From a virus, in IMG/VR virus record IMGVR_UViG_3300031857_001062, positions 1 through 28,119 of that record: DNA of 28,119 bases. One strand, written 5' to 3'. The position numbers and the translations under genes are program-made. Position 1 is the first letter of the stretch. The number at the start of each line of letters is the position of its first letter. The notes beneath the pieces are model-generated. The model searched no databases and was not told the origin of the DNA. It was given only the letters and a program-made list of their open reading frames with translations. Of this stretch, positions 1,938-28,070 are shown piece after piece.

Positions 1938-2963
1938 ATGGATTGGTTAGCACAAAAATATATTGGTATTATTTCATCAAGATTAGAAAAATTCAAACGT
2001 AAGGGACCTAGCCTATATAACTTTAGGTGTCCTTTATGTGGTGATTCTAATACCCATAAGAACAAAGCCAGAGGCTATATCTATCAAAAAGAAGGTAAAC
2101 TAATGTTTCACTGTCATAATTGCAGTGCAACAATGGGTATTCCTAAGTTTTTGAAGATAATTGACGAAAATATATATAATGACTATCAACTAGAAAAACT
2201 AAAAGATTCAAAGACTCCTGAACAAATCAACTTAGAAAAGTTTGTTGAGAAGATGAAGAAACCTGTCTTCATGAAATCAGGGCCTTTAAAAGGATTGAAG
2301 AAAGTCAGTCAACTTTCTCCGGAGAATCCTATAAAAAAATTCGTTATGAACAGAAAGATACCTAATGAATATCATGCCAAACTATTTTCTTGTCCTAATT
2401 TTATGCATTATGTCAATAGTCTTGTTCCCGACAAGTTTTCAGTTGAAGCTCTGGCTAAGGATGAGACAAGATTGCTTATTCCTTTTCTGGATGGTGATAA
2501 GTCCGTTCATGCCCTCCAAGGAAGATCTCTTCGGGGATCTTCGAAAGTTAAATACATTACAATTATACTTAGGGATGATGTACCTAAACTTTATGGTTTG
2601 GACACTTTGGATAGTTCAAAGCGCATATATGTCCTGGAGGGTCCGATCGATTCTATGTTTATTCCAAACTCTGTTGCTACTGCTGGCGGCGACTTGGTAT
2701 CTGCATGCGGCAGTCTCAACAAGCCAAACCTGGTAATTGTGTATGATAATGAACCAAGAAGCAAAGAAACTGTAAAGAAACTGGACAAGGCAATTATGCA
2801 AGGATATAGTGTTTGTATCTGGCCAGAGAATCTAGAACACAAAGATGTTAATGATATGGTATTAGCAGGGTTGACTTCTGACTTCATTCAGTATATAATT
2901 GATCAGAATACATATAAAGATCTTGCAGCAAAACTAGCACTACAAAAATGGAGTAAAGTATGA
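1938..2963 (+). CDS. 61: DnaG-type DNA primase (T4 gp61-like)
   Basis: 341 residues. An N-terminal zinc-ribbon has Cys31 and Cys34 (CPLCG) and Cys59 and Cys62 (CHNC), as in bacterial and T4 primases. The C-terminal half has a TOPRIM-type domain: the Glu-containing strand VLEGPIDSMFIP, then LVIVYDNEPRSKE and the EHKDVNDMVLAG segment. The length fits T4 gp61 (about 340). It makes RNA primers for lagging-strand synthesis with the replicative helicase. The start at ATG 1938 is preceded by AAGGA. It is the first gene after the consensus promoter and overlaps the next gene by four bases. Confidence 0.88.
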   Translation: MDWLAQKYIGIISSRLEKFKRKGPSLYNFRCPLCGDSNTHKNKARGYIYQKEGKLMFHCHNCSATMGIPKFLKIIDENIYNDYQLEKLKDSKTPEQINLEKFVEKMKKPVFMKSGPLKGLKKVSQLSPENPIKKFVMNRKIPNEYHAKLFSCPNFMHYVNSLVPDKFSVEALAKDETRLLIPFLDGDKSVHALQGRSLRGSSKVKYITIILRDDVPKLYGLDTLDSSKRIYVLEGPIDSMFIPNSVATAGGDLVSACGSLNKPNLVIVYDNEPRSKETVKKLDKAIMQGYSVCIWPENLEHKDVNDMVLAGLTSDFIQYIIDQNTYKDLAAKLALQKWSKV

Positions 2964-3214
2964 GAGTTCGAAAGAAACCAGTTGAAGTTGAAGCAATGCA
3001 ACTTCTTGATTCTAATGCAGATATTGTAGCAAAATGGTGTAATGGATTGTCTCTTAGGAGAGAAGATAATGCAGAACCTTCTATTCAGATTATAACACTA
3101 GAAGGTGTTATGACTGCACGACTACGAGATTATATAATTAAAGGAGTGTATGGCGAGTTTTATCCTGTGGCTCCTGCTATTTTTGAACAGACATATGAGG
3201 TAATTGAATTATGA
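2960..3214 (+). CDS. Conserved small phage protein ('RKKPVEVEAMQ' family)
   Basis: 84 residues, ATGA overlap with the primase stop. It begins with RVRKKPVEVEAMQ and carries ITLEGVMTARLRDYIIKGVYGEFYP towards the C-terminus. This combination (KKPVxxEAMQ near the N-terminus, then TLEG and DYIIKGVxGEFYP) is a very common small protein in many unrelated tailed phages, with no established function. The family call is from memory of this pattern. Confidence 0.7.
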   Translation: MRVRKKPVEVEAMQLLDSNADIVAKWCNGLSLRREDNAEPSIQIITLEGVMTARLRDYIIKGVYGEFYPVAPAIFEQTYEVIEL

Positions 3215-3372
3215 ACGACAGAAACGTATGGAAAGAAAGATTTCAGGAATATTTTGACTGTTCTTCAAACGAACAAAAAGAAAATTATTGCCCATGGTAT
3301 TTTGAAGAAGATTTTATGATAGAGATTAGTCCTGACATTACTCTTTTTAAAAAAGAGTTTCATAAATTATGA
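3211..3372 (+). CDS. 53-residue acidic phage protein
   Basis: ATG at 3211 overlaps the previous stop (ATGA) and the frame closes at TGA 3370-3372. The product starts MNDRNVWKERFQEYFDC and is rich in aromatic and acidic residues (CPWYFEEDFM). There is no recognisable domain. Support comes from the translational coupling and from the good ribosome binding site of the following gene, which sits exactly at its stop. The function is unknown. Confidence 0.55.
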   Translation: MNDRNVWKERFQEYFDCSSNEQKENYCPWYFEEDFMIEISPDITLFKKEFHKL

Positions 3373-3382
3373 GGAGAAAAAC

Positions 3383-3553
3383 ATGACCGATGAAGAAACA
3401 AATAAGCTAAAGAAGATTCTTTTTGTCTTAACTCTTATTAAAAATAAAGAATCTGATGAACGCAAGCTTGCATACTCAGAAGCAATTGAAGAAGCAATTG
3501 AAGAAGCAATTGAACATGCAAAAGAACTTTTGGGAATAAAAGTTAAATTGTGA
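3383..3553 (+). CDS. 56-residue helical protein with an EAIE triplicate
   Basis: Starts at ATG 3383 after a strong GAGGAG site at 3371-3376. The product is predicted to be helical, with three perfect EAIE repeats encoded by a 12-base unit (3479-3514) and a short basic C-terminus. There are no Cys residues and no membrane segment long enough to span a bilayer. Function unknown; the strong ribosome binding site supports it as a real gene. Confidence 0.6.
   Translation: MTDEETNKLKKILFVLTLIKNKESDERKLAYSEAIEEAIEEAIEHAKELLGIKVKL
3479..3514 (+). repeat. 12-bp tandem repeat, three perfect copies
   Basis: The unit GAAGCAATTGAA occurs three times without mismatch and in frame inside the preceding gene, adding the residues EAIE per copy. 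Such perfect coding repeats can change copy number by slippage. Confidence 0.9.
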
Positions 3554-3561
3554 GACAATTA

Positions 3562-3666
3562 ATGAGCGAAGAACAGTTTGTCAAATGTTATGTTGTTTTT
3601 GGCTGTGTATTTCTGATCTTAATAGTGATGGATATGTTTGGATTATGGGGGAACAGTGATGAATGA
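3562..3666 (+). CDS. 34-residue single-span membrane peptide
   Basis: ATG 3562 to TGA 3664-3666. The product has a short polar N-terminus, then one hydrophobic span (CYVVFGCVFLILIVMDMFGLW) and a short acidic end. It overlaps the next gene by eight bases, and the next gene's ribosome binding site (GGGGGA) lies inside it, indicating coupling. Small one-span peptides like this are frequent among phage early genes. No function can be assigned. Confidence 0.5.
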   Translation: MSEEQFVKCYVVFGCVFLILIVMDMFGLWGNSDE

Positions 3667-4303
3667 CATTCATCAGCAGCAATTGAAGCAAGTAAGAGAA
3701 AGCGTATATGAGGAAAATCTGCGGCTTCGTGCCGAACTCGCCGCAGCCAATGAGTTTAAGAAGCATTACACTGATTTGATTTCAGTCAATGCTGAACTAA
3801 TGGGAGCACCTAATGACGGATCGATTACAGACTCAGTAGTTCAAATAGAGAAACTTGTAAAGAAACTTCGTGCCGACCTCGATGCCGCTAATGAGGAAGT
3901 CGAAAAATTACGGGAACGCCTTGGTCCACATGGACTAGTCGTCGTAGACATAGACAAGACGGGGCATTACGTGTCTGAGAAAGTTGCCGACGAAATCACC
4001 CGCCTCCGTACCGACCTTGCCGTAGCCAATGAGCGATGTGAGATGCTGACAAAGGAAGTCGTAGAGTGGCGTAGTCGCCCCGATGCTTTGCGGGCTGACA
4101 AAGCCGAAGCCGACCTCGATGCCGCCATTTCAGAGCGTAATGGCCATTACGCTACATTGAAGCATGTGGCTAAAGAGCGTGACGAAGCCTTGCGTAATCA
4201 AGCAGAAACTCAATCTAAACTAGATGCTCTTGAAAAACTGTTTCAGATGACCTGTCAACAGTTTGAAGAAAAGCGCCAGCGTATTCTAGAGGTTCTTGAC
4301 TAA
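3659..4303 (+). CDS. Coiled-coil repeat protein (Ea22-like)
   Basis: About 214 residues. I choose ATG 3659, preceded by GGGGGA at a good distance, over an upstream TTG. The protein is almost entirely coiled coil and contains three degenerate internal repeats (LRAELAAANE, LRADLDAANE, LRTDLAVANE), plus a YVSEKVADEITRLR segment typical of Ea22-like and other phage 'address' proteins. The gene is visibly richer in G and C than its neighbours, especially at 3830-4200, suggesting separate acquisition. Its role is unknown. Confidence 0.6.
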   Translation: MNDIHQQQLKQVRESVYEENLRLRAELAAANEFKKHYTDLISVNAELMGAPNDGSITDSVVQIEKLVKKLRADLDAANEEVEKLRERLGPHGLVVVDIDKTGHYVSEKVADEITRLRTDLAVANERCEMLTKEVVEWRSRPDALRADKAEADLDAAISERNGHYATLKHVAKERDEALRNQAETQSKLDALEKLFQMTCQQFEEKRQRILEVLD

Positions 4304-4346
4304 TGACGAAGCATTGTGTATATTTTTAGTGGAAAGGAGCCTACAC

Positions 4347-4652
4347 ATGACCAAGAATAAAGCAGAATCGGAGTATGTTATGATAAGGCGAAAGTGTGAA
4401 GATTCGGATATGGCAGAGTTAACATTCGCTAAGAATAACGAAAAACTTGACCTGACAGATTATAGGTGTATCCGAATGTTTTCAGAGACCACAGAGGAAT
4501 GGGTTCATAAAGATGAATACGAGCATTTCTATGAAGAGTATCGCAAATTCAATGGTCTGATGATGAGGCATGGTGCGATACTATCATATATAAGTGAACC
4601 GTGTGAAGAAAAGGCTGTCACCACTTTCTTGAGGATGAAGGCGAAAGACTGA
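4347..4652 (+). CDS. Hypothetical phage protein, paralogous to the 6396-6587 product
   Basis: 101 residues from ATG 4347, which follows a near-perfect AAAGGAG site (4333-4339) at seven bases. The in-frame TTG at 4296 lacks such a site. Residues around LDLTDYRCIRMFSETTEEW and VHKDEYEHFYEEY align with SVDLTEYKMVQVRDNGMEEY and VHVDEYDIYKKMYEK of the small protein at 6396, so the two are paralogues. The protein is charged, has no membrane span, and its function is unknown. Confidence 0.6.
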   Translation: MTKNKAESEYVMIRRKCEDSDMAELTFAKNNEKLDLTDYRCIRMFSETTEEWVHKDEYEHFYEEYRKFNGLMMRHGAILSYISEPCEEKAVTTFLRMKAKD

Positions 4653-17695: not shown

Positions 17696-18058
17696 ATGAA
17701 CGAAAACACCTATTGGGGTTATCACCTCATAGTTAATGCAGGCGACTGTAACAGAGAAGCAGTCACAAATCCAGAAACTATTCGTAAGTTCGCAAAAGAG
17801 TTAGTTGAGCGTATTGATATGGTAGCTTACGGAGAGCCACAAATCATTCATTTTGGAGAAGATAATAAGGCTGGATATACGTTAGTTCAGCTTATTGAAA
17901 CCAGTAATATTTGCGCTCATTTTTGCGACGACACAGGTGATGCCTATATAGATGTGTTTTCTTGTAAGCCATATGACATGAATATTGTATTGTCAATGAT
18001 TGATGATTATTTCCTACCGAATAGAATGAACCATAATTATATTGAGAGGCAAGCATGA
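17696..18058 (+). CDS. speD: S-adenosylmethionine decarboxylase-family protein (SpeD-like)
   Basis: 120 residues, AAAGGA upstream. Residues Ser70, His75 and Cys90 (TSNICAHF ... DVFSC) keep the exact 5- and 20-residue spacing of Ser63, His68 and Cys83 in bacterial class 1b AdoMet decarboxylases, where cleavage before the Ser makes the pyruvoyl cofactor. The residue before the Ser is Thr rather than the usual Glu. Phage SpeD relatives may act on AdoMet or on ornithine/arginine. The likely output is a polyamine precursor. Overlaps the next gene by four bases. Confidence 0.75.
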   Translation: MNENTYWGYHLIVNAGDCNREAVTNPETIRKFAKELVERIDMVAYGEPQIIHFGEDNKAGYTLVQLIETSNICAHFCDDTGDAYIDVFSCKPYDMNIVLSMIDDYFLPNRMNHNYIERQA

Positions 18059-18471
18059 TAGTTGGAATTACTTTTGGCGCTTTTGATTTACTTCATGCAG
18101 GACATGTTGCTATGCTAGAAGAAGCCAAGAGAAACTGTGATTATTTGGCTGTGGGATTACATGTTGATCCCACAGTCGAACGCCCAGACACTAAGAATAA
18201 ACCAATTCAGTCTGTATATGAAAGATGGAAACAGCTTAATGCTATGAAAGCTGTTGATGAAATAGTTCCGTATGAAACTGAACAAGATATTGTTAATATG
18301 TTAGCAACGCTTGGAGTAAATAAGAGATTTATTGGATCAGACTATAAAGATAAAAATATCACAGGTGAAGAAGTTTGTATAGCACGTGGTATTGAAATTA
18401 TTTTTATTGATAGAGTTCATAATTATTCTTCTAGTGAATTGAGAAAAAGATGTTCAAAGCAATATTCCTAG
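18055..18471 (+). CDS. HxGH nucleotidyltransferase (TagD / HldE-C type)
   Basis: 138 residues. GITFGAFDLLHAGHVAML carries the HAGH motif (14-17) of the cytidylyltransferase fold, with a later IGSDYKDKNITG loop and a C-terminal YSSSELRKR that replaces the usual STT segment. The size matches glycerol-3-phosphate cytidylyltransferase TagD and the C-terminal half of HldE, which makes ADP-heptose. The heptose genes around it favour a heptose-1-phosphate nucleotidyltransferase. The nucleotide cannot be read from sequence. Confidence 0.8.
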   Translation: MIVGITFGAFDLLHAGHVAMLEEAKRNCDYLAVGLHVDPTVERPDTKNKPIQSVYERWKQLNAMKAVDEIVPYETEQDIVNMLATLGVNKRFIGSDYKDKNITGEEVCIARGIEIIFIDRVHNYSSSELRKRCSKQYS

Positions 18472-18989
18472 ATAAAGATGGTGTTATAAATCATCTGGTT
18501 CAAAGACCTGATGGAAGATTAACCTCTCCATGGCATTTAGATGAACTAATTTTATTTCCTAATGTTTTTGAATCTGTTGAACAATTTAAGAAAATGGGTT
18601 ATAAAGTTTTCGTTGTCACCAACCAGCCAGGTGTATTGGACGGTGAAATGATGATGACTGATTTAGATGATATATGTTCTTTCCTTGAAGATGAAGTAGG
18701 TATTGATCATGTTCTTTACGCTTTAAAGAAAGATAGTCCTCTTTACAAACCAAACAATGGAATGATAGAGGCATTAATAAGAACATATGAAATAGATAGA
18801 GAACCCAGTTTTCTTATTGGGGATAGATGTAAAGATATTATTGCTGGAAATACATCTAATTTAAAAACTATATATATCAGTGATAATAATCATGTTGAAG
18901 ACTGTGGTTTAGTTAAACCTGATTATATCAAAACGAATATATGGGAAGCATGTAAATTAATAATGGAGTTAAATAATGAGCGGGTTTGA
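18450..18989 (+). CDS. gmhB: Heptose-1,7-bisphosphate phosphatase (HAD family, GmhB-like)
   Basis: 179 residues, overlapping the nucleotidyltransferase by 22 bases. HAD motif I is FLDKDGVIN (Asp8 and Asp10), motif II is VTNQPG (Thr57-Asn58-Gln59), the Lys is in YKPNNGM and motif III is LIGDRCKDI (Asp125, Asp129). GmhB removes the 7-phosphate of heptose bisphosphate. The Cys-rich zinc loop of E. coli GmhB is missing; residues 89-100 have no Cys there. This makes it a divergent member; a histidinol-phosphate-phosphatase-like role is less likely given the neighbours. Confidence 0.82.
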   Translation: MFKAIFLDKDGVINHLVQRPDGRLTSPWHLDELILFPNVFESVEQFKKMGYKVFVVTNQPGVLDGEMMMTDLDDICSFLEDEVGIDHVLYALKKDSPLYKPNNGMIEALIRTYEIDREPSFLIGDRCKDIIAGNTSNLKTIYISDNNHVEDCGLVKPDYIKTNIWEACKLIMELNNERV

Positions 18990-19968
18990 AGAAAACGAAA
19001 TTTCAAAGAATGCTAATGGCGGAACAGAAATTACCAAAAGAACATTAGCAAAATATGTTTCAGAAGACTTATTAAAAGAGTTTCAAATTATTCCTTCAAG
19101 ATTTAGAGATATTGAAGAAGACAAGATTCGTGTCTATTGGTGCCATGATTTACCAGAAGACCCAGAATTAAATCATTTAAAAGAGGAAAATAGTCGTAAT
19201 AGATTTCACAAGATGATATTTAATTGTAATTGGCAATTAAATGATTTTCATACTAAGCTTGGTATTCCTTTAGATGAAAAGATTGACATCATTGAAACTC
19301 CTTTCGAACCTTTAGAACTTACACCAAAATCAAAAGACAAAGTAAATCTAATTTACTTTTCTACACCACAACGTGGACTTAATCTTCTTTATCCTGTTGT
19401 TGATGCATTATCAAAAAAATATGATAACATTCATCTTGATGTCTTTTCTTCCTTTAAAATTTATGGTTGGGAAGATGCTGACAAGCAGTTTGAGCCATTG
19501 TATGATAAGATAAAAAATCATTCTCATATGACTTATCATGGTTTCGCACCACAGGAAGAATTAAGAAAGCATGTTCAGAACGCACATATTTTGGCTTATC
19601 CTAACACATGGAAAGAAACTGCTTGTAGAGTTCTGATTGAATCTATGTCTGCCGGATTAATGTGTGTTCATCCTAATCTTGCGGCTCTTAGTGATACTTC
19701 TGGAATGATGACCACTATGTATCAATTCAACGAAGACCCAAGTAAACATGCAGCAATTTTCTATAAATATCTTGAACATGCAATTACTGTAGTCAATACA
19801 GATGAAGTTCAGAATTATTTGAAGTTTGTTAAAGCATATTCTGATAATAGATTTAACATTAATAAAATCAGTTCACAATGGGAATCATTATTGAAAGAAC
19901 TATTGGAAATGTATCCTACTGTCGAATCAAGAAAACCTCAATCAGAAATGTTTGTGTATAAAGTATGA
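18976..19968 (+). CDS. Glycosyltransferase, GT-B fold (GT4-like)
   Basis: 330 residues, GGAG eight bases before ATG 18976, 14-base overlap with gmhB. The N-terminus has NANGGTEITKRTLAKY, the conserved GGTE acceptor-side loop. LIYFSTPQRGLNLLYPVV opens the nucleotide-sugar domain. HGFAPQEELRKHVQNAHILAYPNTWKETACRVLIESMSAG is the GT4 donor-binding region with the E-x7-E motif. It should transfer a sugar, plausibly the heptose activated by its neighbours, to an unknown acceptor. No signal peptide or membrane span. Confidence 0.85.
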   Translation: MSGFEENEISKNANGGTEITKRTLAKYVSEDLLKEFQIIPSRFRDIEEDKIRVYWCHDLPEDPELNHLKEENSRNRFHKMIFNCNWQLNDFHTKLGIPLDEKIDIIETPFEPLELTPKSKDKVNLIYFSTPQRGLNLLYPVVDALSKKYDNIHLDVFSSFKIYGWEDADKQFEPLYDKIKNHSHMTYHGFAPQEELRKHVQNAHILAYPNTWKETACRVLIESMSAGLMCVHPNLAALSDTSGMMTTMYQFNEDPSKHAAIFYKYLEHAITVVNTDEVQNYLKFVKAYSDNRFNINKISSQWESLLKELLEMYPTVESRKPQSEMFVYKV

Positions 19969-20939
19969 TAGTAACTAAAACACCATTAAGAATCTCCTTC
20001 TTTGGAGGAGGTTCTGACATTCCTACATTTTATGAAAATAATGAGGGGATGGTTATATCCACATCTATTAATAGTTACATATATCTTGCTATCAATAGGT
20101 GCGTTGCTTCACACATCAGAGTCATTTATTCTCAATTAGAACAAGTTGAAAATGTTGATGATGTCAAACATGATAGAGTAAGAGAAGCATTAAAGTATTT
20201 TGAGTTTCCAAATCATATTGAAATAGCTTCGTTTTCTGACGTTCCTGTTAAAGGAACAGGTCTTGGTTCGTCGTCTACATTCACTGTTGGACTGATTAAT
20301 GCTTTGTATCGTCTGACACATGGTAAAAATATAGAGACAACAGAATTGGCAGAACTTGCCTCTTATATTGAAATCAATAAGTGTAATGAACCTATAGGAA
20401 AGCAAGACCAATATGCTGCTGCATATGGCGGATTTAATGTCATGTATTTTAATGGTAATAACGTAAGAGTAAAATCTCTTGATGTTGATCCAGGAACAAT
20501 CTATGAATTAAATAATAATCTTTTATGTTTTAATACGGGTATCAATAGACAGGCTTCTTCTGTATTAACAAAACAGGTAGAAAACCTTCAAACAACAGCC
20601 ACTATTGAACACACAAAAGCCATAGTAGAATTAACCAAGAATGCTATAAAATTGTTACAGAAAAGAAAGGTAGATGACTTCGGTAATCTATTGGATCAAT
20701 CATGGCAAATTAAAAAGAAGTTGACAGACAACATAACTAATGATATTATAGACGAAATGTATGATCGTGCTATAAGGTCCGGTGCATTAGGTGGTAAAAT
20801 TCTTGGTGCTGGCGGCGGTGGTTATCTTTTAGTATATGTTCCTGAAAAGAACAAAAAAAGAGTTATTGAATCCATGAAAAATTATGAAAGATTTAATTTT
20901 AAATTTTCAAAAAACGGTTCAACTCTGGAGAGCATTTAA
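19965..20939 (+). CDS. hddA: GHMP kinase, D-glycero-D-manno-heptose 7-phosphate kinase-like
   Basis: 324 residues, ATGA overlap with the glycosyltransferase. The N-terminus TKTPLRISFFGGGSDIPTFY is diagnostic of HddA-type heptose kinases. GTGLGSSS (97-104) is the GHMP ATP loop, and GGKILGAGGGGYLLVYVP near 275-291 is GHMP motif 3. HddA phosphorylates heptose 7-phosphate at C1, giving the alpha anomer used in the GDP-heptose pathway; bacterial LPS cores use a PfkB-type kinase (HldE) instead. Length is normal for the family. Confidence 0.88.
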   Translation: MIVTKTPLRISFFGGGSDIPTFYENNEGMVISTSINSYIYLAINRCVASHIRVIYSQLEQVENVDDVKHDRVREALKYFEFPNHIEIASFSDVPVKGTGLGSSSTFTVGLINALYRLTHGKNIETTELAELASYIEINKCNEPIGKQDQYAAAYGGFNVMYFNGNNVRVKSLDVDPGTIYELNNNLLCFNTGINRQASSVLTKQVENLQTTATIEHTKAIVELTKNAIKLLQKRKVDDFGNLLDQSWQIKKKLTDNITNDIIDEMYDRAIRSGALGGKILGAGGGGYLLVYVPEKNKKRVIESMKNYERFNFKFSKNGSTLESI

Positions 20940-21526
20940 TGTTCAAAAAATATAAACAAATGATAAATGATGCGCTGGATACTGTTGATGAAGAAATTTT
21001 AAAAAATGTTTTTAATACTATAGTAGATTCAGCCTTATATAAAAAGCCAGTTTTAGTGATGGGAAACGGTGGTTCTGCTGCAATTGCAGAACACTGGAGT
21101 TGTGATCATACCAAAGGCGTCAAAACAGATGTTCACGATATGTTCCCCTGTGTACGCAATCTGGCGGCGAACATGTCACTTATGACAGCTATTGCTAATG
21201 ACATGTCATATGATGAAGTATTTTCAAAACAAATTGAATATGAATCATCACTTTATGCCACTGTAATTGCTATATCTTCTTCTGGTAATTCTCCTAACAT
21301 ATTAAAGGGACTTGAAATGGCCCGTAAAAAGAATTATAGCACTATTGCGTTTGTTGGGTTTGATGGTGGAAAAATCCTTGAAGAAAAATTAGCATGTAAA
21401 GTGGTTCATGTCAATGCTGATAATTATGGTGTGGTTGAAGATTGTCATCAGATATTGATGCATTCTTTGGCACAACAGATTAGAATTATTTTTTCGGAGA
21501 AAGAAAAATCCACTCTAAGATTATAA
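20939..21526 (+). CDS. gmhA: Sedoheptulose-7-phosphate isomerase (SIS domain)
   Basis: 195 residues, sharing one base with the kinase stop. The SIS motif VLVMGNGGSAAIAEH (39-52), the second phosphate loop IAISSSGNSPNILKG and the C-terminal YGVVEDCHQILMH with the catalytic-type Glu and His match GmhA. It isomerises sedoheptulose 7-phosphate, drawn from the host pentose phosphate pathway, to heptose 7-phosphate. It is the last gene of the five-gene heptose cassette. Confidence 0.9.
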   Translation: MFKKYKQMINDALDTVDEEILKNVFNTIVDSALYKKPVLVMGNGGSAAIAEHWSCDHTKGVKTDVHDMFPCVRNLAANMSLMTAIANDMSYDEVFSKQIEYESSLYATVIAISSSGNSPNILKGLEMARKKNYSTIAFVGFDGGKILEEKLACKVVHVNADNYGVVEDCHQILMHSLAQQIRIIFSEKEKSTLRL

Positions 21527-25920: not shown

Positions 25921-27345
25921 TCAGTAATTATAACGCTCATTCATTATAGTGTCAAGCATAATTGCTTCTGGAGAGAAGTTCTCTACATTTGCTAGACCCT
26001 TAACCAGTGCAGGAGAGAATCCAGAAACAAGAGCAACTCCAGAAGTATCATACTTAACTGGCTGATTGCCATAAGCAGCATTAAGGTTCCAGAACACTAC
26101 CTTTGGCATAGTATAACCAGCAGCATGATACTTACGAGCGATCATCTCATGAGCAGAATCATCATGACGAGTGCACTGATTGAACTGCATATCAGAAAGA
26201 ATCAGGAGCATGTCAGGCATTTCTTCCTGAGGAACATTACCTTCCTTTGCTACAGTAAGGATCTTGTCCAGAGCCTTGTGTAGATTAGTGTCCATTGCCC
26301 ACTTAGATCTAACCATCTGGTTAATCTTCTGAATAATGTTACCCTTGAGATGCAGTAATTCTGGATTTTCAGAGAAAGTCAAGAACGTATCCTTGAACTT
26401 ACCCTTGTTCTTATCAGCAAGATACAGTCCCAGAGAAACTGCAACGTCTAGACAAGTAACACCACTCTTTGATCCATATCCACCTGCAGGACAGGTCATT
26501 GACCCAGAAACATCAACCAGTGGTAGAATGTTAGCATCACCAACATAGTTAGGAAGCGCATCCCACTGCGCCTGGATATGTCCAAGTTCAGTGGCGTCGT
26601 AGCTCGACATATAATAATGATTAGCAGCACCCTTCAGAACATCGTAAGGATAAACTGCTCCAGCATTAACCTTTACGCCATCCTCGCCCTTTACGAGCTT
26701 CTGAACATACTCGGCAAACTTTACAGAGTGCTTGTTGAACGCCTTCTTGTAACGAGCAGCAGCAAGAGAAGGAACCTTATTAAAGTCAATCTCATCCCAC
26801 TTATTCGCACACATTGGAGTTTCAACAACGTTGGTTAGGTTAACCAGAGTCTTACGATACTGCTTTGGAGTCATACCAAGGAATGCACGTAGCTCTGCAG
26901 CCACTTCGCCCTTACGAGGCATCCACTTAGCAACAAGTCCAGCAGTGTTCTGGTTTGACAAACCTTCACGGATAAACTCGAAAGCAGACTTACGAACATC
27001 GCCCTTTGCAGTTAGGAGATCATCCCAACGGCCAAGTTCCGGAACCTTATGCACAATACGAGCAGCTAGTGCAGGATCGTTGTCACATAGATACTGGAAA
27101 ATATCACGGAAGATCTTGCGTTCGCCAGAACCACCACGAGCATCACGTGCCCAAAGAGCAATACGAGTTGCAATATCCTTGTTAGTAACATAAGCAGCTA
27201 CGAAAGCAGGGATGATATCCTTACCACGAGAAGCACCAATGTTGAAGTAAAGATCAACTAGCGGATTAGCAGTTGACTTTAGAGCCTTCATACCATTTTC
27301 GGTACGAGCAGACTGATTCTTTACAGCATTAACAAAAGTAGACAT
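25921..27345 (-). CDS. Ro60/TROVE-like protein with vWA domain (DUF2828 type)
   Basis: 474 residues, start preceded by GAAAGG. Residues 1-265 are helical and match the DUF2828/TROVE ring: LWARDARGGSGERKIF (64-79), GRWDDLL, WMPRK, VVETPMCANKWDEIDF and the AGAVYPYDVLKG segment. Residues 270-460 are a von Willebrand A domain with the MIDAS motif DVSGS (278-282), Thr353 and SDMQF (384-388). Ro60 proteins are HEAT-repeat rings that bind Y RNAs and misfolded RNA ends. Directly upstream lies an array of structured RNA units, one holding a permuted tRNA, which suggests they are its ligands. DUF2828 being Ro-related is from memory. Confidence 0.88.
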   Translation of the reverse strand: MSTFVNAVKNQSARTENGMKALKSTANPLVDLYFNIGASRGKDIIPAFVAAYVTNKDIATRIALWARDARGGSGERKIFRDIFQYLCDNDPALAARIVHKVPELGRWDDLLTAKGDVRKSAFEFIREGLSNQNTAGLVAKWMPRKGEVAAELRAFLGMTPKQYRKTLVNLTNVVETPMCANKWDEIDFNKVPSLAAARYKKAFNKHSVKFAEYVQKLVKGEDGVKVNAGAVYPYDVLKGAANHYYMSSYDATELGHIQAQWDALPNYVGDANILPLVDVSGSMTCPAGGYGSKSGVTCLDVAVSLGLYLADKNKGKFKDTFLTFSENPELLHLKGNIIQKINQMVRSKWAMDTNLHKALDKILTVAKEGNVPQEEMPDMLLILSDMQFNQCTRHDDSAHEMIARKYHAAGYTMPKVVFWNLNAAYGNQPVKYDTSGVALVSGFSPALVKGLANVENFSPEAIMLDTIMNERYNY

Positions 27346-27363: not shown

Positions 27364-27421
27364 GGTTTGAACTTTGAGTCATATTTCAAGTATGATTTTT
27401 GATAGTTGCGGAACTCAAACC
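27364..27421 (-). ncRNA. Array unit 5, in the leader of the Ro-like gene
   Basis: Closing stem GGTTTGA (27421-27415) with TCAAACC (27370-27364), extendable by two G-U and one A-U pairs. CCGCAA at 27411-27406. The insert has a small hairpin (TCATA with TATGA). It ends 18 bases before the Ro-like ATG and four bases before its GAAAGGA site, so it is part of that mRNA's 5' leader unless cut away. Confidence 0.75.
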
Positions 27422-27430
27422 AAAACTAAC

Positions 27431-27548
27431 AGGATGAACTTTTACGTGCTCTACTACTGAGCTACCTCCCCATAGATGGTGGAGAGGGTGGGATTTGCAC
27501 CCACGACCACGGGATTACAAGTCCTAGATTAATTGCGGCAGTCATCCT
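27431..27548 (-). ncRNA. Array unit 4, containing a permuted tRNA-Thr
   Basis: Closing stem AGGATGA (27548-27542) with TCATCCT (27437-27431). CCGCAA at 27538-27533. The 73-base insert is a full tRNA in permuted order (27445-27524). The unit is 118 bases, twice its neighbours, and keeps the shared frame, linker and motif, so the tRNA is embedded in the same scaffold as the other units. Confidence 0.85.
27445..27524 (-). tRNA. Circularly permuted tRNA-Thr(UGU) or tRNA mimic
   Basis: On the minus strand the 3' half comes first (27524-27477): anticodon loop CTTGTAA (anticodon UGU at 27519-27517), T arm GTGGG/CCCAC, acceptor arm CCTCTCC, then ACCA. A five-base linker (TCTAT, 27476-27472) leads to the 5' half (27471-27445): GGGGAGG, TA, D arm GCTC/GAGC, A, CG. 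The acceptor arms pair over all seven positions (one G-U). C27 and G28 of the 5' half pair with C42 and G43 of the 3' half, so the break is between 28 and 29. T loop TGCAAAT lacks U55 and the D loop AGTAGTA lacks a GG pair, which hints at a mimic rather than a translating tRNA. Confidence 0.88.
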
Positions 27549-27557
27549 AAAACCAAC

Positions 27558-27627
27558 GGGAAACAATGCTCACCATGAGCGTACCTTGGCCCAGGGGCCG
27601 AGTATAATTGTTTGCTGTATGCTTCCC
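27558..27627 (-). ncRNA. Array unit 3, with acceptor-stem and D-arm-like insert
   Basis: Closing stem GGGAAGCA (27627-27620) with TGTTTCCC (27565-27558), eight pairs with one G-U. CAGCAA at 27617-27612. The insert has a 7-bp hairpin (CTCGGCC with GGCCAAG, one A-C mismatch, CCTG loop; 27602-27585), then GTAC and a D-arm-like GCTC-ATGGT-GAGC (27580-27568). The order equals the acceptor-TA-D-arm part of the permuted tRNA in unit 4, without T and anticodon arms. Confidence 0.75.
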
Positions 27628-27636
27628 AAAACTAAC

Positions 27637-27703
27637 AGGATTGTATTTGTCGGCGTAACAAAGTTGAAAGTTTGTTACCTTTATTGTTTGCTGAAACAAT
27701 CCT
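27637..27703 (-). ncRNA. Array unit 2
   Basis: Closing stem AGGATTGT (27703-27696) with ACAATCCT (27644-27637), eight perfect pairs. CAGCAA at 27693-27688. The insert is a strong hairpin, GTAACAAA and TTTGTTAC around an eight-base loop (CTTTCAAC). No tRNA resemblance is visible. Confidence 0.8.
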
Positions 27704-27712
27704 AAAATTAAC

Positions 27713-27761
27713 GGGATCAACTTTTTTGCTCCAATGCATAGTTAGTTGCTGAACTGATCCC
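27713..27761 (-). ncRNA. Array unit 1
   Basis: Closing stem GGGATCA (27761-27755) with TGATCCC (27719-27713); three more positions could pair through G-U and A-U (GTT with AGT). CAGCAA at 27751-27746 opens the conserved motif. The insert is short and has no strong hairpin. It is the first unit, about 43 bases after tRNA-Gly, so processing of the tRNA 3' end may release its leader. Confidence 0.75.
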
Positions 27762-27804: not shown

Positions 27805-27878
27805 TGGAGCGGGAGAAGGGAATCGAACCCTCGTCTTTAGTTTGGAAGACTATGGCTCTACCATTGAGCTACACCCGC
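27805..27878 (-). tRNA. tRNA-Gly(UCC)
   Basis: 74 bases with encoded CCA and discriminator U. Acceptor GCGGGTG with CTCCCGC (one U-U mismatch at the sixth pair), D arm GCTC/GAGC with GG in the loop, anticodon loop CTTCCAA (UCC), T loop TTCGATT. A 34-codon frame ends just upstream of it. It is followed by the structured RNA array. Confidence 0.93.
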
Positions 27879-27994: not shown

Positions 27995-28070
27995 TGGTGC
28001 TGGCAGAAGGAATCGAACCCTCGACCTGATGCTTACAAGGCAACTGCTCTACCGTCTGAGCTATACCAGC
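27995..28070 (-). tRNA. tRNA-Thr(UGU)
   Basis: 76 bases in normal order. Acceptor GCTGGTA with TGCCAGC, D arm GCTC/GAGC with GG in the loop, anticodon loop CTTGTAA (UGU), T loop TTCGATT, A73 and encoded CCA. It reads the same codons as the permuted tRNA in unit 4 and has an identical anticodon loop but a different acceptor stem. Confidence 0.96.

What the first reader, a model, noticed from the sequence alone, without database searches (positions are those of the whole stretch)
27364..27761. Five-unit array of structured RNAs beside a Ro60-like phage gene: a candidate new Ro/Y-RNA-type system
Seen directly: five units on the minus strand, each closed by its own 7-8 bp stem. Each has the 11-base motif CMGCAAHYAWY beginning exactly 10 bases after the unit start, and the units are separated by a nine-base GTTRRTTTT linker. 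The closing stems differ in sequence yet always pair with their own partner, so pairing is conserved while sequence is not. Established: Ro60 proteins bind Y RNAs through a stem formed by the RNA's two ends, leaving the internal part free as an effector module; bacterial rsr genes often sit next to Y RNA genes. Inference: the array is a polycistronic set of Y-like scaffolds for the DUF2828 protein, each with a different head.
Basis: partly seen in the sequence, partly recalled or inferred. Interest (0 to 1): 0.96.

Follow-up and report, generated by a model that had tools for sequence, protein, structure and literature searches.

The report
tRNA-mimic RNA array beside Ro60-like gene
Five small RNA units lie next to a phage gene for a Ro60-fold protein; hundreds of relatives in phages and bacteria share the same paired foot and carry heads that often imitate whole, rearranged or partial tRNAs, which points to a widespread, undescribed branch of the Ro60/Y-RNA systems, probably tied to tRNA damage and repair.

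Summary
The array is real, exactly where described: five units, each closed by its own stem, motif at +10, nine-base linkers, against 0.03 expected by chance. It is not peculiar to this phage. The same foot (7-bp stem, NNTWCAGCAA, complementary arm, GTT) lies beside DUF2828 genes in 155 of 163 loci (antisense control 16), in phages of many hosts and beside DUF2828 in bacterial and archaeal assemblies (69 of 80 loci). The stem covaries: positions 4-7 all pair in 173 of 219 units against 18.5 with partners shuffled. A 15-base piece of the foot predicts DUF2828 only when its complementary arm follows (34/74 against 0/45 records). The protein model has the full-length Ro60 fold (Z 21 over 407 residues). 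Heads are tRNA-like far above chance: lone anticodon arms, T-arms, circularly permuted tRNAs, tRNAs without acceptor stem. In bacteria, RtcB often follows DUF2828 (25/80, same strand). Binding, processing and function are inferred. Most likely these are Y-like RNAs presenting tRNA mimics during tRNA damage and repair.

The parts
27713..27761 (-). Unit 5 (first in transcription order): stem GGGATCA/TGATCCC, motif CAGCAACTAAC at +10, short head with TGC-ATTGGA-GCA
   Evidence: almost the same foot (GGATCAGTTCAGCAA...AGTTGATCC) recurs in other contigs
27704..27712 (-). Linker GTTAATTTT
   Evidence: linker length of 9-10 nt is the mode among relatives
27637..27703 (-). Unit 4: stem AGGATTGT/ACAATCCT, motif CAGCAAACAAT, head with 8-bp hairpin GTAACAAA-CTTTCAAC-TTTGTTAC
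   Evidence: (z -3.4)
27628..27636 (-). Linker GTTAGTTTT
27558..27627 (-). Unit 3: stem GGGAAGCA/TGTTTCCC, motif CAGCAAACAAT, head with GC-rich hairpin and D-arm-like GCTCATGGTGAGC
27549..27557 (-). Linker GTTGGTTTT
27431..27548 (-). Unit 2: stem AGGATGA/TCATCCT, motif CCGCAATTAAT, head = circularly permuted tRNA-like RNA (3' half, then 5' half)
   Evidence: sub-gathering match to Rfam YrlA RF02553, 34.1 bits, E 9e-6
27512..27524 (-). Unit 2 anticodon-loop part GGA-CTTGTAA-TCC (UGU, Thr-like)
   Evidence: sequence; stem completed by CG from the other half
27488..27504 (-). Unit 2 T-arm GTGGG-TGCAAAT-CCCAC
   Evidence: sequence
27465..27487 (-). Unit 2 acceptor hairpin CCTCTCC-ACCATCTAT-GGGGAGG
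   Evidence: sequence
27448..27462 (-). Unit 2 D-arm GCTC-AGTAGTA-GAGC
   Evidence: sequence
27422..27430 (-). Linker GTTAGTTTT
27364..27421 (-). Unit 1, nearest the gene: stem GGTTTGA/TCAAACC, motif CCGCAACTATC, head with anticodon-arm-like TCATA-CTTGAAA-TATGA (27395-27379, UGA, Ser-like)
25921..27345 (-). DUF2828/DUF7788 gene, 474 aa, Ro60 fold (helical repeat domain + vWA with DxSGS MIDAS motif)
27805..27878 (-). tRNA-Gly (TCC) upstream on the same strand
27995..28070 (-). Ordinary tRNA-Thr (TGT), same anticodon as the permuted head of unit 2

Best explanation
The array is a polycistronic set of Y-like RNAs for the adjacent Ro60-fold protein. Shown computationally: a conserved foot (7-bp closing stem of free sequence, then NNTWCAGCAA on the 5' side and A-rich sequence before the 3' arm, then GTT), conserved association and strand with DUF2828, a Ro60 fold for that protein, and heads that mimic tRNAs or tRNA arms. 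Inferred: host nucleases cut the U-rich linkers and release 50-120 nt RNAs (up to about 220 nt in relatives); each binds one DUF2828 ring through the foot; the head stays outside as bait. Most likely job: presenting tRNA mimics (above all anticodon arms) so that the particle captures or diverts proteins that cut, modify, repair or degrade tRNAs, that is, a role in tRNA damage and repair. In phages this would counter host tRNA-targeting defences; in bacteria it belongs to an RtcB-type RNA repair locus. My estimates: array real and conserved 0.97; foot is the DUF2828 binding site 0.85; heads work as tRNA mimics 0.65; specifically decoys of anticodon nucleases 0.3.
For: Five units against 0.03 by chance. 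Units beside DUF2828 in 155/163 loci, antisense control 16; two or more in 144 against 3. Unbiased covariation 173/219 against 18.5, maximum 29. Foot-seeded contigs: DUF2828 in 34/74 with stem (12 of 14 records over 100 kb), 0/45 without, p 2e-9. Ro60 fold: 2i91 Z 21.0, 1yvp 20.7, phage phiLo Ro60 15.6, each over about 400 residues, unrelated vWA proteins 11 or less over about 170. Tandem units with 9-10 nt linkers, last unit a median 22 nt before the protein match. Heads: short ones carry an anticodon-type arm in 44/165 against 1.6 shuffled; phage units under 140 nt: T-arm 77/300 against 0.7, anticodon arm 70/300 against 4.3; cellular: 30/165 and 42/165 against 0.65 and 3.2. 60 of 80 T-arm heads are permuted tRNAs. 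Cellular DUF2828 loci: 173 sense against 7 antisense units; RtcB 25/80, all same strand; WYL-type regulator 32/80; RlaP 5/80. RtcB also near DUF2828 in Listeria phage P61. The literature calls Ro/TROVE a platform for RNA repair with a tRNA-like partner (PMC7824862) and suggests YrlA's tRNA-like domain as a competitive inhibitor of an anticodon nuclease (PMC7790460).
Against: No transcript, processing or binding data. The protein is not recognised as TROVE by sequence: Pfam reports only DUF7788 and DUF2828, and the TROVE match in the PDB is weak (E 0.024). About 60% of phage heads from units under 140 nt show neither a T-arm nor an anticodon arm by my patterns, and long heads form two families without an Rfam match. 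Eight of 163 DUF2828 loci show no permuted-type unit nearby, though in KVP40 and phiAS5 units lie elsewhere. RtcB is rare in the phages (1/28 records).
Confidence: 0.65

Rival explanations
1. The foot is a protein-spliced tRNA intron or permuted-tRNA junction: arms pair, the foot is removed, exons are joined by an RNA ligase, and functional tRNAs (and circular RNAs from non-tRNA heads) result.
For: Both orders exist: foot inside the anticodon stem of otherwise normal-looking tRNA genes (L001, L002, L003, KVP40, phiAS5) and circularly permuted. In several cases removing the foot restores a 5-bp anticodon stem. ATP-grasp RNA ligases occur in many of these phages (Rnl1 11/28, Rnl2 12/28).
Against: Most heads cannot become tRNAs: lone anticodon arms, acceptor strands fused by short loops, cellular heads in which the foot replaces the acceptor stem, linear forms in which it replaces the anticodon arm (L197 4142, L198 3560). 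KVP40 has two normal tRNA-Asn(GTT) besides the interrupted Asn-like one; the window has a normal tRNA-Thr(TGT) besides the permuted one.
Confidence: 0.12
2. Same RNP, different job: heads tether the Ro60-like protein to a partner such as PNPase or gate its central hole, for decay or quality control of structured RNA (as known for Deinococcus Y RNA), rather than acting as decoys.
For: Ro60 fold; Deinococcus Rsr is tethered to PNPase by Y RNA (PMC7790460).
Against: Many different tRNA-derived heads per array are more than one tether needs; no partner gene is constantly present in the phages.
Confidence: 0.25
3. Cis-acting leader: the units are 5' UTR structures that autoregulate DUF2828 translation through protein binding.
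For: The last unit ends a median 22 nt before the protein match and in the window runs into the ribosome-binding site.
Against: Units also lie 3' of the gene (L001, L003, Staphylococcus 6ec, Mycobacterium Rumpelstiltskin) and kilobases away within tRNA clusters.
Confidence: 0.1
4. Chance pairing or an ordinary repeat.
For: Single-unit folding z-scores are modest.
Confidence: 0.01

Closest known systems
Bacterial Ro60 (Rsr) with Y RNAs, e.g. YrlA (Rfam RF02553) and the Deinococcus Y RNA
   Same: Ro60-fold protein; RNA ends pair into a stem; RNA genes beside the protein gene; permuted tRNA-like head in YrlA and in unit 2
   Different: Protein is DUF2828/DUF7788, not TROVE by sequence; foot has a different consensus (CAGCAA at +10); arrays of up to 9 units with different heads; anticodon loops often kept; YrlA score below gathering (34-46 of 69 bits)
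rsr-yrlBA-rtcBA RNA repair operon (Salmonella)
   Same: Ro-type protein, Y-like RNAs and RtcB in one locus in bacterial relatives
   Different: WYL-type regulators instead of RtcR in the two loci annotated with Pfam; most phages lack RtcB; the window itself shows none near the array
Circularly permuted and split tRNA genes (archaea, red algae)
   Same: 3' half before 5' half, with flanking complementary arms
   Different: Most heads cannot give functional tRNAs; a normal isoacceptor is present where checked
'Ro-like RNA binding protein' of mycobacteriophages (annotation)
   Same: Same protein family, about 33% identical; units found beside it (L222)
   Different: As far as the held library shows, no RNA partner with this foot has been described for it

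Membership tests
Ro60/Y RNA ribonucleoprotein | Protein with the Ro60 architecture (helical repeat ring plus vWA with MIDAS) | tested here: met
   AlphaFold model pLDDT 80.5; Ro60 2i91 Z 21.0, 407 residues; DxSGS invariant in 22 sequences
Ro60/Y RNA ribonucleoprotein | TROVE sequence family (PF05731) | tested here: not met
   Pfam at E 0.001 reports DUF7788 and DUF2828 only; PDB TROVE proteins E 0.024. So I do not file the protein as TROVE
Ro60/Y RNA ribonucleoprotein | RNA with a stem formed by its two ends, gene near the protein gene | tested here: met
Ro60/Y RNA ribonucleoprotein | RNA physically bound by the protein | not testable with these tools
   needs co-purification or a binding assay
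YrlA (RF02553) | Score above the Rfam gathering threshold (69 bits) | tested here: not met
   window unit 2: 34.1 bits; L044 45.9, L015 36.5
YrlA (RF02553) | Permuted tRNA-like module: T-arm, acceptor helix, D-arm | tested here: met
   window unit 2 and 60 of 80 T-arm heads; not in the other window units
YrlA (RF02553) | Same protein-binding foot as the units here | tested here: inconclusive
   Rfam consensus foot differs; nine TROVE-hit loci show no credible unit, but the sample is small and stretches are short
RtcB RNA repair operon | RtcB in the locus | tested here: inconclusive
   none seen near the array in the 28-kb window; 25/80 cellular relatives, 1/28 viral records, Listeria phage P61
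Permuted or intron-containing tRNA gene | Complete functional tRNA after removal of the foot | tested here: not met
   possible for unit 2 and some relatives, impossible for lone-arm heads, fused-acceptor heads and acceptor-less heads

The most novel reading that the evidence does not exclude
DUF2828 with its CAGCAA-foot RNAs is a second, separate and widespread Ro60/Y-RNA-like system of phages, bacteria and some archaeal assemblies, in which one locus displays a menu of different tRNA mimics (anticodon arms, permuted and acceptor-less tRNAs) to catch or mislead tRNA-cutting enzymes and assist RtcB/RlaP-type repair.
Probability: 0.4. Interest if true: 0.95.

Novelty: new variant of a known kind. 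Interest (0 to 1): 0.88.

Why it matters
DUF2828/DUF7788 is a family of unknown function present in 681 of 50,697 phage records (including phages of E. coli, Vibrio, Listeria, Staphylococcus and Mycobacterium) and in many bacteria. Giving it a Ro60 fold and a cognate RNA partner with a simple, searchable foot makes an old question, what Y RNAs and Ro60 do in bacteria, testable in cultured phages. Arrays of tRNA mimics next to tRNA repair genes would also be a new layer in the conflict over tRNA cleavage.

Tried and rejected
1) Rfam at gathering thresholds: nothing in the array; only ordinary tRNAs. 2) Splicing hypothesis, first raised by the foot-in-tRNA genes of L001-L003, dropped as the general explanation because most heads cannot be tRNAs. 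3) RtcB as universal partner in phages: 1/28 records. 4) Folding z-scores alone: modest. 5) My anticodon-arm pattern also matches some T-loops, so the mid-size ASL counts and the CGA/CAA rows are contaminated; one search excludes T-loops. 6) Stem statistics from the scanner are biased because it demands pairing; anchors only on the ends and tests positions 4-7. For cells the same test is weaker (56/181 against 19, maximum 28) because the anchors fit less well. 7) Literature: no hit for DUF2828 with phage, or for permuted tRNAs encoded by phages; key Y RNA papers (Chen 2014, Sim and Wolin 2018, 2020) and Burroughs and Aravind 2016 are not held, so prior mention cannot be excluded. 8) TROVE-hit loci in one phylum: no credible units. 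9) DUF2828 in the same phylum: 8 of 398 genomes, units in some of those short loci only.

Full report
WHAT IS THERE. The window is a 28-kb virus record with phage genes such as PhoH, RNase H, primase and Thy1. On the minus strand, between two tRNA genes (Gly TCC, Thr TGT) and a 474-aa gene (25921-27345), lie five tandem units (27761-27364). Each starts with a 7-8 nt arm, has C[AC]GCAA exactly 10 nt after its start, ends with the complementary arm, and the first four are followed by GTTRRTTTT; after the last one comes the likely ribosome-binding site of the gene. A scanner for arm, motif and complementary arm finds all five, against 0.032 on average in 1000 shuffles.

RELATIVES IN PHAGES. The protein matches DUF7788 and DUF2828 and PHROG 850 'RNA-binding protein'. 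Relatives occur in 681 of 50,697 phage records. Loci from viral contigs and NCBI phages were scanned with the same rule. Of 163 loci with at least 600 nt before the gene, 155 have at least one unit within 1.5 kb on the gene's strand (antisense control 16) and 144 have two or more (control 3); 403 different units in all. Units were seen beside DUF2828 in phages of Escherichia (EC6), Campylobacter, Mycobacterium, Listeria, Staphylococcus (6ec), Klebsiella, Aeromonas, Sinorhizobium and Enterococcus, and in a 735-kb phage. Consensus: [AG]G[GA][AT]TNNNTWCAGCAA ... AAAA..NNA[TA]CC[TC]GTT; linkers peak at 9-10 nt and the last unit ends a median 22 nt before the protein match.

TWO INDEPENDENT TESTS. 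(a) Covariation: anchoring only on the conserved ends, positions 4-7 all pair in 173 of 219 units, against 18.5 (maximum 29 of 500 shuffles) when 3' arms are exchanged among units; all four Watson-Crick pairs occur at positions 4, 6 and 7, and position 8 is unpaired. (b) Association from the RNA side: 119 stretches were drawn by the DNA word GGATCAGTTCAGCAA alone. Where the complementary arm follows, 34 of 74 records carry DUF7788 (12 of 14 records over 100 kb); where it does not, 0 of 45 do (Fisher p 2e-9). Larger-scale scans of four genomes put the credible units in the tRNA/DUF2828 region on the strand of DUF2828, e.g. KVP40 175-182 kb with DUF2828 at 168-170 kb.

THE PROTEIN. An AlphaFold model from 27 relatives (pLDDT 80.5) matches Ro60 over its whole length: 2i91 Z 21.0 (407 residues), 1yvp 20.7, Thermus phage phiLo Ro60 15.6, Deinococcus Rsr 11.6; unrelated vWA proteins reach 11 or less over about 170 residues. 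DxSGS (the vWA metal site) is invariant. By sequence it is not TROVE, so it is a separate family with the Ro60 fold.

THE HEADS. The unit at 27548-27431 holds a circularly permuted tRNA: anticodon loop CTTGTAA, T-arm, acceptor strand with ACCA, five bases, other acceptor strand, D-arm. Rfam YrlA, the known tRNA-mimicking Y RNA, matches it at 34.1 bits, E 9e-6, below its gathering score of 69. Among phage units under 140 nt, T-arms occur in 77 of 300 (0.7 in shuffles) and 5-bp/7-nt anticodon-type arms in 70 (4.3); short heads alone give 44 of 165 against 1.6. 60 of 80 T-arm heads are permuted tRNAs, many with acceptor strands joined by a short loop. Anticodon arms are dominated by UGU, UGA and UUU. 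Linear forms also exist, with the foot inside or in place of the anticodon arm of a tRNA. Because lone arms, fused acceptors and acceptor-less tRNAs cannot serve in translation, and because KVP40 (two normal Asn tRNAs) and the window (normal Thr tRNA) already encode the isoacceptor, mimicry explains the set better than splicing.

BEYOND PHAGES. One scan of bacterial and archaeal genomes returned DUF2828 loci from Clostridia, Synergistetes, Akkermansiaceae, Treponema, Thermoactinomyces, Fusobacterium naviforme, a Lokiarchaeota MAG and others. 69 of 80 have units: 173 on the sense strand against 7 antisense. Heads again show T-arms (30/165 against 0.65) and anticodon arms (42/165 against 3.2), often a tRNA whose acceptor stem is replaced by the foot. 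RtcB is found in 25 of 80 loci, always on the same strand and often directly after DUF2828; WYL-type regulators in 32, RlaP in 5. Some of these contigs may be mobile elements: L370 and L373 carry ROOL RNA and tRNA clusters. In one drawn phylum sample, 8 of 398 genomes have DUF7788.

HOW IT PROBABLY WORKS. Shown: conserved covarying foot, linkage to a Ro60-fold gene, tRNA-like heads. Inferred from the Ro60/Y RNA precedent: each unit is released, bound by its foot, and displays its head. The link with RtcB and RlaP, and published views of Ro/TROVE as an RNA-repair platform with a tRNA-like partner (PMC7824862) and of YrlA as possible competitor of an anticodon nuclease (PMC7790460), make tRNA damage the likeliest setting. 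Whether heads are decoys, baits that recruit repair enzymes, or tethers for a nuclease is open.

VERDICT. It works like a Ro60/Y-RNA system; membership in TROVE or YrlA as defined is not met. New variant of a known kind, high interest.

Noticed in passing
L026 2748, L293 1165, L018 2547, L255 3266 and others; L015 2597, L259 1531, L206 5950, L265 400 and others: Long heads (units of 140 nt or more) fall into two conserved families of 43 members each (about 150-170 nt, many with a T-arm-like GAGTTTCGATTTCTC and AAAAAGTAG; about 180-220 nt, many with ACCACCGTAAGGTG) with no Rfam match.
   Followed up: partly
L002 6579-6827, L003 6895-7138, L001 6891-7125, KVP40 (L321) 2000-4560 minus, phiAS5 L225 9935-10089: tRNA-like genes of 113-121 nt interrupted in the anticodon stem by the same foot as a hairpin; deposited annotations call some tRNA-OTHER or pseudo.
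   Followed up: partly
Window 27713-27761; L226 7635-7688; L228 1533-1585 and 5852-5906; L051 2864-2917; KVP40 176722: Recurring short heads with a hairpin whose loop reads ATTGG(A/T) in very different phages; perhaps a D-loop mimic or a protein site.
   Followed up: no
L220 (Escherichia phage EC6) 7416-12837: 25 tRNA genes and four units in a region with no annotated tRNA in the deposited record.
   Followed up: partly
L002 737-1137 and L051 924-1320: Phage-encoded tmRNA matching both the permuted and betaproteobacterial tmRNA models; the L002 coding part also contains a CATTCAGCATGG stretch resembling the foot motif.
   Followed up: no
L370 2062-2636, L373 1674-2248: ROOL RNA upstream of a tRNA cluster, units and DUF2828 in Clostridiales/Mogibacterium MAG contigs, suggesting that some cellular loci are phage-derived.
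   Followed up: no
L402 1478-7315, L430 68-6808, L422 434-1066: Cellular DUF2828 loci with WYL-type regulators, RtcB, RlaP, a macro domain or NADAR-DarT1 genes.
   Followed up: partly
Window 17696-21523: Phage sugar/lipid-type genes: SAM decarboxylase, heptose adenylyltransferase-like, glycosyltransferase, GHMP kinase, SIS isomerase.
   Followed up: no
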